A DNA stretch of 64,000 bases. Source: Siphlonurus alternatus (Eukaryota; Arthropoda; Insecta; Ephemeroptera; Siphlonuridae). Under the pieces are notes generated by a model. The model ran no database searches and was not told the origin of the DNA. It saw only the letters and a program-made list of their open reading frames with translations. Below, piece by piece: positions 29,726 to 42,324 of the stretch (positions within the stretch are counted from its first letter, which is position 1; each line of letters begins with the position of its first letter). Where the stretch lies: positions 19,905,799 through 19,969,798 of the forward strand of contig OX463788.1 in assembly GCA_949825025.1 (NCBI GenBank), given 5' to 3'. Position numbers and translations under genes: made by a program.

Positions 29726-30878
29726 AGTAGTGAAGAATTAAGGCTAAAGGCACATAAATCTCGCAGGGTTTGCACCGGTGCAATCGGTGCAAACCCTTCC
29801 AAATTCAAGCAAAAGTTTGCCTGCGAAGCGAGGTGAAAGGCGTGCAGTGCCCGCCCGCCTTCCCTGGCGCCAGGGTGGCGGACACCACCCTCCACCCACC
29901 CTGACACGATGCGACTCCCAGTGATTATGTGACGTCACGGTAAGTTTGTGAACTTTCTCCCCACCAAGATGGAACCAGACAATTAATTGGTGCATTTTTT
30001 CTTGTTGCATGAGCATCATAGAATAATAATTTTTTAAAAGCACCGGTGCAAACCCTTTGAAATTCATGCAAAAGTTTTCCTTTGAAAATTTATGCTATAT
30101 CTTTGGTGAAAGGTAGGCGGAGGGAGAGAAGAGGGGAGGGGAAGAGGCTAGCAGTCGGTCGGGTACAGGCACATGAATCTCGCAGGGTTCGCACCGGTGC
30201 AAGCTAAGGTGAAAGGTATGCAGTGGGGTGGCGTAGTATGTTAAAAGAAATTATTATAAGTTTCCAAGCAACAAAGATGTGACTAGACGTAATAGACAGT
30301 CTAATCTAATTCATAAAAAATTCGGATGAGCAAACTAAAAGAGACCATCATTAAAAAAAAAAATATACATATATATATATATCTGTTTCCTCTCTACTTA
30401 TAATTATAAAAGCTTCTGTGATATAGTGGCTTTGGTGCTTTGGTGCTCTCCCCACCCAGTGTTTTTAAAAAAATTATTATTCTATGATGCTCATGCAACA
30501 ATGCAACAAGAAAAAATGCTGTTAATCAATGCATGTTGCAAACTTTAAGGGGCAACTCTTTGAAAATATCATCATATTTTAAAGAGACCAATATCGGAGC
30601 AGGATGCATACCTCTAAGGGGCAACTTTATGAAATGTATGTATGATATGGCACAGTGGCGGCGGGAAGGCGGGCGGGCAAGCGGGGCGGGAGAAGGCGCG
30701 CGTTTTCAAATTATATCCGGACGGCGGCGATAAATAAATTGTTGTACGCTCGGAGGAGGGTATCCCGGACGGCCGCGATCTTTGGTGCACAAGTTTCCGC
30801 ACCACCCGAGAGGTAGCGTGCATGGCGCGTTTCCCTTGTTTAACGTGTAGGGTTCCCCGATAGGCCTATGAACACGAA
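29726..30878. repeat. Left Polinton terminal inverted repeat
   Basis: Reverse complement of 41094-42324. The inner boundary is at GGCCTATGAACACGAA. A GCACCGGTGC palindrome, part of the block next to the tip, recurs near 30040 and 30180, so the repeat is itself modular. Mirrored short frames occur in both arms and are not genes. Confidence 0.93.
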
Positions 30879-30884
30879 GAGGTT

Positions 30885-31493
30885 TTATTCTCCAAGCATA
30901 CTGCACGTAGGACTGTACTTGTAGTGTAACACAGCAGCCAAGTCGCCCTTCTTCCAGTTCTTGATTTTCAAGTTGCAGGATGAACATTTGACGCAGTCTC
31001 CCTCTCCGATCCATTTGAAGCCATAAAGTTTTAAGTCAGCTACTGCTACAGGAAACTTCCAGTGTGCAGGGTAGTCAATGCAGGGAACTTTGCAAGAATC
31101 ATACTCAGCTTCATGTTCCTCGCAATTGTTTCCACAATCACATTCAACATCATTATAAACAAGCCTGATACAAGTAGGACTAAGTTTCAGATGTTCAGTG
31201 AATGCACGATTTTTGCTGTCCCAGTCCCTAATTTTTACCTCGCAGTACACGCAGCTCACGCAACTAAGTTTTGAGTCATCATTCAACCACAAAAAGCCAT
31301 AGCGTGCCAAATCATTGATCATAGCTTTGCTGTAAGGTAGGCTGTGTTTTGGGAAGGTGAGTCGTCTTCCTTCTTCAGACTCTATGAAGTAACCATGTCC
31401 ATGAAGGTTGCGTCCAGCATTACACCAACAACGACACTTGTGAAAGATGTAATTGTCGCGAAAATCTCGAACGAAGTAGCCTCTGGAAGACAT
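30885..31493 (-). CDS. Two-BIR-domain IAP-like protein
   Basis: A 202-residue protein with two baculovirus-IAP-repeat domains. The first lies at about residues 44-111 and the second at about 140-199. Each has the zinc-binding pattern Cys-x2-Cys-x16-His-x6-Cys (CVYC...H...SPTC and CSSC...H...SPTC) and a GF-W stretch before it. No RING or CARD domain follows. BIR proteins bind caspases or IAP antagonists, and related viral proteins delay host-cell death. This role is inferred here, not shown. The gene lies just inside the left terminal repeat and points outward, divergent from the capsid block. The frame is intact. It is accessory, not part of the core Polinton set, and was probably captured from a host or another virus. 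Confidence 0.88.
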   Translation of the reverse strand: MSSRGYFVRDFRDNYIFHKCRCWCNAGRNLHGHGYFIESEEGRRLTFPKHSLPYSKAMINDLARYGFLWLNDDSKLSCVSCVYCEVKIRDWDSKNRAFTEHLKLSPTCIRLVYNDVECDCGNNCEEHEAEYDSCKVPCIDYPAHWKFPVAVADLKLYGFKWIGEGDCVKCSSCNLKIKNWKKGDLAAVLHYKYSPTCSMLGE

Positions 31494-32130
31494 GACGGAA
31501 AAATGACGAACACTTTCTAGTCGTACAGAATCGTTTGTTGAGGGGAGGGATTAGCTTGAATCTGATTGGTTCAGTGTGTGACGTCAGTGACGTAGACAAA
31601 ACAGGTATGAACATGTTGAGATTCGAAGGTCATTAGACTATGAAAAATCAATTAACCTGAGGAGGCTATTAGAATCATTAGCGAAAAGATCATTAGAGAG
31701 AAAAAAAAAAAATGATGTCATTGATGTAAAGAGGAACAAGTATGAACATGTTGTGACTGTAAGGTTATTATACAGCAAAATCAATTCATTTGTAGAGCTA
31801 TTAAATTTTTTTTCTACCAGATCCTACTACGAGTTCCCTTTTTATTGCGAGTTCCTACTACGAGTTCCCATTTTACTGCAAGTTGCTACTGCGAGTTCCC
31901 TTTTTACTGCGAGTTCCTACTACGAGTTCCCTTATTACTGCGAGTTCCTACTACGAGTTCCCTTTTTACTGCAAGTTACTACTGCGAGTTCTCTTTTTAC
32001 TGCGAGTTCCTACTACGAGTTCGCTCTTTTACTGCGAAATATTATATAAAATCTGAAAACTTTATGAAAATACCTCAGTTCATCTTCAGCAAGCATTAAC
32101 TACAAATCGTCGCTCTGAGGAGCAATTAAA
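31494..32130. promoter_or_regulatory. Divergent intergenic region with a tandem repeat
   Basis: This 637-bp gap separates the leftward BIR gene from the rightward ATPase gene and must hold both promoters. At 31820-32040 a unit of about 30 bp made of CTACTACGAGTTCCC and TTTTTACTGCGAG repeats about six times. The array gives open frames that repeat SSYYEF-like peptides; I do not regard these as genes. It could be an enhancer, a replication signal or simple minisatellite growth. Confidence 0.6.
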
Positions 32131-40545: not shown

Positions 40546-40588
40546 GTGGTCAAATCATGACCACTACTCTAATTTTTGGACAAGGGTA

Positions 40589-40871
40589 TGGATTAACACC
40601 ATTGATCGATCATCATATAGAATTTTTGTCGAGGTATCCATCTTGGAATTTTAATCAAGTAGAGTTGCAAGACTTGACATCCAATGTTTGTGGCCAGTAT
40701 TGCTTGCTGTATTTATCTGCAAGAATGAATGGTACTTCAATGAAAAGATTTCTGTCTGTATTTAGTACGGATTATATTCAAAACGACGAGTTGGTAAGGT
40801 CATTGGTGAAGAAAAGGTTCAAAAACGTAAAGCATACCTCTGGAGGACAACACTGTTGCTCTTTGCAGTAA
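40589..40871 (+). pseudogene. Adenain-type maturation protease, C-terminal part
   Basis: About 94 codons continuing the frame broken at 38482. It holds LTPLIDHHIEFL and the catalytic centre block LTSNVCGQYCLLYL, in which the first Cys is the nucleophile and the Gln seven residues upstream would form the oxyanion hole (family C5 pattern). The piece ends at TAA 40869-40871. No damage other than the transposon insertion is visible. Any downstream ATG start in the transposon (40557) would produce a piece without the histidine and therefore no protease activity. Confidence 0.88.
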
Positions 40872-41093
40872 TACATATATGACAGAAAATATATATACAT
40901 ATAAATATAAAAAACGAAAAAAAAAATATTATAAAAAATGTAAAAAAAATTAAAAAAAATATATAAAATTAAAAAAAATATATATAAATAATGTAGAAAA
41001 AAATTAAAAAAATATATAAAATTAAAAAAAAATATATAAATAATTAAAACATGGAATAAATTATAAAATATATATACATACATATAGATTTAG
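40872..41093. other. A/T-rich spacer before the right TIR
   Basis: Repeats of ATTAAAAAAAATATATAAA-type sequence without coding content. It may provide polyadenylation signals for the capsid block. Confidence 0.6.
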
Positions 41094-42324
41094 TTCGTGT
41101 TCATAGGCCTATCGGGGAACCCTACACGTTAAACAAGGGAAACGCGCCATGCACGCTACCTCTCGGGTGGTGCGGAAACGTGTGCACCAAAGATCGCGGC
41201 CGTCCGGGATACCCTCCTCCGAGCGTACAACAATTTATTTATCGCCGCCGTCCGGATATAATTTGAAAACGCGCGCCTTCTCCCGCCCCGCTTGCCCGCC
41301 CGCCTTCCTGCCGCCGCTGTGCCATATCATACATACATTTCATAAAGTTGCCCCTTAGAGGTATGCATCCTGCTCCGATATTGGTCTCTTTAAAATATGA
41401 TGATATTTTCAAAGAGTTGCCCCTTAAAGTTTGCAACATGCATTGATTAATAGCATTTTTTCTTGTTGCATGAGCATCATAGAATAATAATTTTTTTAAA
41501 AACACTGGGTGGGGAGAGCACCAAAGCACCAAAGCCACTATATCACAGAAGCTTTTATAATTATAAGTAGAGAGGAAACAGATATATATATATATATATA
41601 TATATATATATATATATATATATATATATATATATATATATATATATATATATATATATATATATATATATATATATATATTTATATTTTTTTTTTTTGC
41701 TGAGATAATGATGGTCTCTTTTAGTTTGCTCATCCGAATTTTTTATGAATTAGATTAGACTGTCTATTACGTCCAGTCACATCTTTGTTGCTTGGAAACT
41801 TATAATAATTTCTTTTAACATACTACGCCACCCCACTGCATACCTTTCGCCTTAGCTTGCACCGGTGCGAACCCTGCGAGATTCATGTGCCTGTACCCGA
41901 CCGACTGCTAGCCTCTTCCCCTCCCCTCTTCTCTCCCTCCGCCTACCTTTCACCAAAGATATAGCATAAATTTTCAAAGGAAAACTTTTGCATGAATTTC
42001 AAAGGGTTTGCAACGGTGCTTTTAAAAAATTATTATTCTATGATGCTCATGCAACAAGAAAAAATGCACCAATTAATTGTCTGGTTCCATCTTGGCGGGG
42101 AGAAAGTTCACAAACTTACCGTGACGTCACATAATCACTGGGAGTCGCATCGTGTCAGGGTGGGTGGAGGGTGGTGTCCGCCACCCTGGCGCCAGGGCAG
42201 GCGGGCGGGCACTGCACGCCTTTCACCTCGCTTCGCAGGCAAACTTTTGCTTGAATTTGGAAGGGTTTGCACCGGTGCAAACCCTGCGAGATATATGTGC
42301 CTTTAGCCTTAATTCTTCTCTACT
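41094..42324. repeat. Right Polinton terminal inverted repeat
   Basis: Inverted copy of 29726-30878. It differs mainly by a long TA expansion (about 41581-41682, where the left copy has about 20 bp of TA) and small indels. For example, the left arm has about 9 extra bp next to its GCACCGGTGC palindrome. High similarity suggests a recent insertion or conversion between the arms. Confidence 0.93.

What the first reader, a model, noticed from the sequence alone, without database searches (positions are those of the whole stretch)
29726..42324. Complete-ended Polinton that keeps the virion genes but has lost polymerase and integrase core
The sequence shows a 6-bp duplication (ATGCAG), AG termini and long inverted repeats, so both ends are present. 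Between them are ATPase, minor and major capsid, pVI-like and protease genes, but no protein-primed polymerase B and no integrase core. Polintons normally carry these. Retained capsid genes without replication genes would fit a satellite-like or trans-mobilised element, or an element kept for particle formation.
Basis: partly seen in the sequence, partly recalled or inferred. Interest (0 to 1): 0.9.

Follow-up and report, generated by a model that had tools for sequence, protein, structure and literature searches.

The report
Polymerase-less Polintons with borrowed ends
In what is likely a mayfly genome, a virus-like mobile element is a lone, decaying member of a family whose 17 other copies carry predicted capsid genes and an integrase but show no DNA polymerase gene within 30 kb, so the family was likely copied by polymerase supplied by other elements in the same genome.

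Summary
In detail: 29726-42324 is an end-to-end Polinton (TSD ATGCAG, AGTAG termini, 1.15-kb TIRs, virion-gene block) without polB or integrase core. The two losses have different histories. The integrase core was cut from this copy alone (824 bp; 17 of 17 relatives keep it); two inserts break its protease and another ORF. This exact architecture is single-copy. The polB loss is shared: the 17 nearest relatives (MCP 91-94% aa) have no polB hit within 30 kb; both ends were located for 16 (11.1-14.4 kb). Representatives of three subfamilies have 6-bp TSDs, an integrase and no polB. Low dN/dS (MCP 0.03-0.07, integrase 0.09-0.22) says the genes stayed functional. Genome-wide, 82 MCP loci and 48 polB loci coincide at 4. 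Outer ends (74-277 bp) are shared across distant lineages: this element wears the 98%-identical cap of a polB-bearing family whose MCP is only 83% identical. Best reading: a capsid-bearing, replication-defective family multiplied in trans. Trans-replication is inferred; the polB-bearing relatives seen are themselves damaged.

The parts
29720..29725 (.). target-site duplication ATGCAG, left copy
   Evidence: matches 42325-42330
29726..30878 (+). left terminal inverted repeat
29726..29931 (+). outer cap shared with clade B elements (98% over 206 bp at two ends; 93-94% over 131 bp at four more ends)
30885..31493 (-). IAP-like protein with BIR domains (202 aa); no tblastn hit in the 17 clade-A upstream stretches; related gene in an end arm of the clade-B copy on C3
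31808..32037 (+). 31-bp tandem array, also matched in clade-A left arms
32131..33129 (+). packaging ATPase candidate (GPTSCGKS) with N-terminal C2H2 stretch that matches the ORF upstream of polB in clade B: likely scar of the polB-region deletion
33163..33486 (+). small ORF (PX-like, label recalled)
33484..35537 (+). remains of an ORF that is 452-498 aa in three relatives listed; broken here by a frame disruption and by an insert
34100..34638 (.). 539-bp insert with about 14-bp target duplication (retroposon-like), absent from the 17 relatives
35534..35866 (+). 110-codon ORF: integrase N-terminus joined to integrase C-terminus/chromodomain; 824 bp of the relatives' integrase missing at 35603/35605
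35776..36516 (+). minor capsid protein candidate (246 aa)
36509..36916 (+). pVI-like protein candidate (label recalled)
36916..38223 (+). major capsid protein candidate (435 aa), open frame intact
38223..38482 (+). protease gene candidate, 5' part
38483..40586 (.). 2104-bp DNA-transposon insert: TA duplication, CCCTTGTCC terminal inverted repeats, subterminal AGTGGTC arrays; absent from the relatives
40587..40871 (+). protease gene candidate, 3' part
40872..41093 (.). AT-rich stretch where relatives carry a 226-aa ORF and a PP1-binding ORF; both missing here
41094..42324 (-). right terminal inverted repeat
42325..42330 (.). target-site duplication ATGCAG, right copy

Best explanation
The element is one decaying copy of a Polinton lineage (clade A) in which no polB gene was found, which keeps predicted virion genes and usually an integrase, and which was likely replicated in trans by protein-primed polymerase from polB-bearing elements in the same genome. 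Shown: no polB hit within 30 kb of any of the 18 members; both ends located in 16 of 17 relatives and in the window; purifying selection on genes of subfamily representatives; about 95-99% DNA identity over long stretches within subfamilies, so copying went on without polB in cis. Inferred: a polB-bearing helper reads the AGTAG ends; the outer 74-277 bp 'caps', which are shared between distant lineages, would be the part that lets a client use a given helper; integrase and particles would come from clade A itself. The window copy lost its integrase core at an unknown time: if before insertion, its clean ends and TSD would require integrase in trans. It has since gained two inserts.
For: Relatives: 17 copies with MCP 91-94% aa (90 of 90 candidates scored). 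No polB hit within 30 kb of any (58 of 61 candidates scored). The motif Y.DTDS was in none of the clade-A loci then held. Both ends found for A1 6/6 (one end lacks the outer 19 bp), A2 5/5, A3 5/5, A4 0/1. One copy each of A1, A2, A3 held from end to end in separate pieces, with perfect 6-bp TSDs and no polB-sized ORF in the lists made (the A3 left-arm list was made on sister copies). Identity within subfamilies; A3 TIRs 98-100% across five loci. dN/dS between four representatives: MCP 0.033-0.073, integrase 0.092-0.222, protease 0.075-0.183. Shared scar: N-terminal 100 aa of the clade-A and window ATPase match the 604-aa ORF upstream of polB in clade B (27% over 101 aa, 3e-11; 25% over 120 aa, 4e-9). 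Populations: 82 MCP loci (79 with integrase, 82 with ATPase, 4 with polB); 48 polB loci (4 with MCP). Caps: window and clade B 98%/206 bp while MCP is 83% aa with saturated dS; A1 and clade C 96%/277 bp while MCP is 53%; A2 and C2:2351437 99%/77 bp, beside a 53% MCP locus; one A1 copy wears the A2 cap outside its A1 TIR at both ends. Candidate helper: C1:377365 to about 388573 (right end extrapolated), AGTAGT terminus, inner TIR of A1/A2, polB at 383329-385633, no MCP hit.
Against: No replication or transposition was observed. No polB-bearing copy that I saw is shown to be intact: clade B on C8 has the region as separate ORFs of 604, 182 and 774 aa and a split MCP, on C11 polB is in pieces, on C3 it is a fragment; the candidate helper is one copy with polB in two frames (1114 and 299 aa). 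The multi-copy polB families showed no end similarity to clade A, though the lists were capped (complete in 138 and 141). Clades C-G were not read; a polB too far from the query could hide there. Cap donors for A1 and A2 have no polB hit themselves, only one side of the clade-C loci matched, and the direction of exchange is not known. The ATPase scar match lies in C2H2 fingers, which are common and could match for other reasons. Not all clade-A copies are intact: minor capsid ORF short in 2 of 17, protease missing or short in 3 of 17 in my ORF recovery. Integrase and ATPase lists were capped (114 of 260 and 122 of 202 candidates scored), so their absence near polB loci is uncertain.
Confidence: 0.6

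Rival explanations
1. Clade A is self-sufficient without polB: it moves by its own integrase as a DNA transposon and is copied by host polymerases only.
For: 17 of 17 relatives keep an integrase and have 6-bp TSDs where checked (3 of 3). No end similarity to the multi-copy polB families was seen.
Against: A cut-and-paste route does not explain purifying selection on capsid and protease genes or caps shared with other virus-like lineages.
Confidence: 0.15
2. Ordinary decay: the window copy is a dead Polinton and the polB-less family amplified briefly while a full element was active, with no lasting helper relation.
For: The window copy has two inserts, a broken protease, a private integrase deletion and 18 of 1143 TIR differences. 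The polB-bearing clade-B copies seen are damaged.
Against: Subfamilies with synonymous divergence up to 0.37 in integrase share the polB absence and show purifying selection, which needs repeated mobilisation over a long time.
Confidence: 0.2
3. Detection failure: clade A or the other capsid clades carry a very divergent polB.
For: The polB query came from clade B only; clades C-G were seen only as hits.
Against: A1, A2 and A3 representatives were held end to end and the ORF lists show none that could be a polB; the polB search reached 37-63% identity with 58 of 61 candidates scored.
Confidence: 0.08

Closest known systems
Polintons/Mavericks (Polintoviricetes; adintoviruses, the latter recalled)
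   Same: 6-bp TSD, AG-CT termini, TIRs, virion-gene block, rve integrase with chromodomain in relatives; passages of PMC8097293 give 12.7-24.6 kb, 6-bp TSDs, two gene modules and purifying selection for vertebrate Mavericks.
   Different: No polB found in the whole clade; the window also lacks the integrase core. The PMC8097293 passages treat elements with broken polB as defective.
Polinton-like viruses
   Same: Mostly lack polB and rve integrase (PMC11071308 passages).
   Different: They encode other replication proteins; none was seen among the ORFs scanned, and the relatives keep the rve integrase.
Non-autonomous transposons and large retrotransposon derivatives
   Same: Mobilised in trans while keeping cis-acting ends (PMC6431247 passages).
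   Different: Large retrotransposon derivatives have lost much of the coding sequence; clade A keeps virion and integrase genes under selection.
Virophages, satellite and defective viruses (recalled analogy)
   Same: Would depend on another element for replication.
   Different: Virophages exploit a giant virus; here the likely helper would be a sister Polinton.

Membership tests
Polinton/Maverick | 6-bp TSD, AG...CT termini, TIRs | tested here: met
Polinton/Maverick | protein-primed polB | tested here: not met
   none in the window element or near clade A
Polinton/Maverick | retroviral-type integrase | tested here: not met
   core deleted in the window; present in 17 of 17 relatives
Polinton/Maverick | major and minor capsid, ATPase, protease | tested here: inconclusive
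   homology to clade B and to insect proteins, protease interrupted; no Pfam or PDB match for MCP; MCP fold job unfinished
Polinton-like virus | replacement replication gene | tested here: not met
   none among the 18 ORFs scanned (10 in the window, 8 from relatives)
Non-autonomous trans-mobilised family | several copies sharing the same deletion | tested here: met
   polB absence in the window and 17 relatives, shared ATPase extension; not met for the integrase deletion
Non-autonomous trans-mobilised family | ends shared with an autonomous element | tested here: inconclusive
   cap 98%/206 bp shared with polB-bearing clade B, but no clade-B copy is shown to be intact
Non-autonomous trans-mobilised family | replication by the helper's polymerase | not testable with these tools
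   needs an experiment

The most novel reading that the evidence does not exclude
In this genome Polintons work as a divided virus: capsid elements (capsid + integrase, no polB) and replication elements (polB, mostly with their own integrase, no detected capsid gene) are separate mobile DNAs that complement each other. Exchange of the outermost 74-277 bp re-pairs capsid elements with helpers, and clade B (both gene sets) is a fusion or the surviving undivided form.
Probability: 0.36. Interest if true: 0.93.

Novelty: new variant of a known kind. Interest (0 to 1): 0.8.

Why it matters
Polintons are defined by carrying their own polymerase and integrase. A multi-copy capsid-bearing family kept under selection without polB, in a genome where capsid and polB loci hardly coincide, would show division of labour in a virus/transposon lineage and gives a natural system for asking what the ends of a protein-primed element must contain. 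Selection on capsid genes in elements that cannot replicate alone is also indirect evidence that particles matter.

Tried and rejected
Viral-contig scans with the MCP alone and with a 12-row MCP alignment gave no relative; no phage-record match. The IAP search gave one distant metagenome protein. Papers: in the listings (titles and starts of abstracts only) I recognised no report of polB-less capsid-bearing Polinton families or of divided Polintons; the 15 of 45 papers listed contain no mention of Polintons at all. Only passages of PMC11071308, PMC6431247 and PMC8097293 were seen. 'Several copies of the same double loss' was rejected because 17 of 17 relatives keep the integrase. 'PolB moved to the right arm in clade A' was rejected for one copy each of A1, A2 and A3; the other right arms were not read, and for them absence rests. 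PDB search with the polB ORF gave only chance matches. An MCP fold prediction did not finish, so no fold evidence is claimed. The search with the A3 outer end alone did not complete.

Row handling: one search used 57 of the 59 polB rows (two fragments left out); one search used all 59. One search used one representative of each of four subfamilies; its motif recovered integrase ORFs in 15 of 17 clade-A copies, though one search finds all 17. Capped lists. The motif scan was made before L044-L047 were fetched.
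Full report
1. The observation. The element occupies 29726-42324 between ATGCAG duplications, with AGTAG termini and TIRs of about 1.15 kb. Between them lie a BIR-domain gene, an ATPase candidate, small ORFs, an integrase remnant, the capsid block and a protease candidate. In the element's ORFs Pfam supports BIR and Chromo; labels for MCP, minor capsid, pVI and protease come from motifs and gene order as I recall them, backed by homology to relatives. The nearest named MCP hits are from Ephemera danica (61%), so the host is likely a mayfly; the genome itself is unnamed (455.7 Mb, 102 contigs).

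2. What happened to this copy. In the 17 closest relatives a full-length integrase (354-355 aa where the ORF was recovered; rve 2.1e-10 for one) stands where the window has a 110-codon ORF; 824 bp are missing between 35603 and 35605, and 17 of 17 relatives keep it. The protease is interrupted by a 2104-bp insert at 38483-40586 with a TA duplication and inverted terminal repeats. An ORF of 452-498 aa in three relatives listed is broken here by a 539-bp insert with a 14-bp duplication and by a frame disruption. Two ORFs that follow the protease in relatives, one with a PP1-binding domain (4.4e-7), are missing. The TIR arms differ at 18 of 1143 aligned positions. This copy is decaying, and its architecture is single-copy: its 206-bp cap is found otherwise at six ends of three clade-B elements, apart from weaker or shorter matches (13 of 13 candidates scored).

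3. The family behind it. Clade A has four subfamilies by sequence: A1 six copies, A2 five, A3 five, A4 one. Ends were located for 16 of 17, giving 11.1-14.4 kb. One copy of each of A1-A3 was held in full in separate pieces: C2:25688871-25701088 (TSD CAGACA), C1:7845044-7856186 (AATAGG), C11:1469205-1480770 (AACATG). The ORF lists show no polB. In the genome-wide polB search no hit lies within 30 kb of any clade-A MCP. Between the four representatives dN/dS is 0.033-0.073 in MCP, 0.092-0.222 in integrase, 0.075-0.183 in protease, 0.18-0.42 in ATPase and 0.32-0.58 in the 226-aa ORF.

4. The polB loss looks ancestral. In clade B (C8 copy) the order is 604-aa ORF, 182-aa ORF, polB-like ORF of 774 aa with YMDTDS, ATPase of 246 aa, and so on. 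In clade A and in the window the ATPase ORF is 329-388 aa, and its N-terminal 100 residues match the 604-aa ORF upstream of polB; hits of other clades start near residue 110, some near residue 60 with stops read through. The simplest reading is one deletion that removed polB and left its upstream zinc-finger stretch fused to the ATPase, before A and the window lineage split; chance similarity of C2H2 fingers is not excluded. The polB label itself rests on the motif and position; Pfam gave only Endonuclease_7 (5.5e-4), and the PF03175 search did not complete.

5. Two populations. Merging hits within 15 kb gives 82 MCP loci, of which 79 have an integrase within 8 kb, 82 an ATPase within 12 kb and 4 a polB within 30 kb; and 48 polB loci, of which 37 have an integrase within 8 kb, 6 an ATPase and 4 an MCP within 30 kb (about 0.5 expected by chance). 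The polB-linked integrases away from clade B are a different, 39-44% group on the other strand, about 0.4-0.8 kb from polB in the examples I checked by eye. The MCP list was complete for its candidates (90 of 90) and the polB list nearly so (58 of 61); the integrase and ATPase lists were capped, so those absences near polB are uncertain. The polB loci could have capsid genes too divergent for my query; they were not read.

6. Shared ends. The outermost stretch is shared between lineages whose genes are far apart: window with clade B (98%/206 bp; MCP 83%), A1 with clade C (96%/277 bp; MCP 53%), A2 with C2:2351437 (99%/77 bp; beside a 53% MCP locus), and one A1 copy wearing the A2 74-bp cap outside its A1 TIR at both ends. 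Further in, A1 and A2 share their TIR with C1:377365 to about 388573, a polB element without an MCP hit and with at most a 33-aa ATPase trace (E 8e-4). I infer that caps hold the replication origin and are exchanged by recombination or template switching. The window's IAP gene, without a hit in the 17 clade-A upstream stretches or in two clade-B upstream stretches but present in an end arm of the clade-B copy on C3, suggests that its left arm came with the clade-B cap.

7. Mechanism and limits. Shown: polB absence by search and by reading representatives, paired ends, similar copies, selection, shared caps. Inferred: trans-replication by a polB-bearing helper, with integrase and capsid made by the client. 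Not shown: which helper serves which client, or that any helper copy is intact. Results against: the clade-B copies and the C1 helper candidate are damaged; the multi-copy polB families share no detected ends with clade A; cap donors for A1 and A2 lack a polB hit; some clade-A copies have broken ORFs.

Noticed in passing
window 30885-31493 (-): IAP-like gene with BIR domains in an animal Polinton; related gene in the clade-B copy on C3 (58-64% aa over parts), one distant metagenome homologue.
   Followed up: partly
L003:4026-4304: Clade A carries a small ORF with a PP1-binding (GADD34-like) domain, 4.4e-7; a similar ORF is seen by eye in clade B. Possible stress-response antagonist, missing in the window copy.
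   Followed up: partly
G000:C3:44593370-44609908: Clade-B copy with the MCP arm duplicated in inverted orientation at the other end (snap-back form) and only a polB fragment.
   Followed up: partly
G000:C7:24081359-24091155: Element with A1-like TIRs and two inverted ATPase copies but no MCP hit.
   Followed up: no
window 38483-40586: TA-duplicating 2.1-kb transposon with subterminal AGTGGTC tandem arrays in inverted orientation; family not named.
   Followed up: partly
window 34100-34638: Short insert with 14-bp duplication and a TTC-rich edge; retroposon-like.
   Followed up: no
window 20125-20898 and 26811-27542: ORFs that look like reverse-transcriptase ends of non-LTR elements (by eye only).
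   Followed up: no
G000:C11:15149836-15161895: Left end tandemly duplicated (about 1.36 kb) in the copy that wears the A2 cap.
   Followed up: no
window 41582-41687: (AT)53 microsatellite inside the right TIR, shorter in the left TIR.
   Followed up: no
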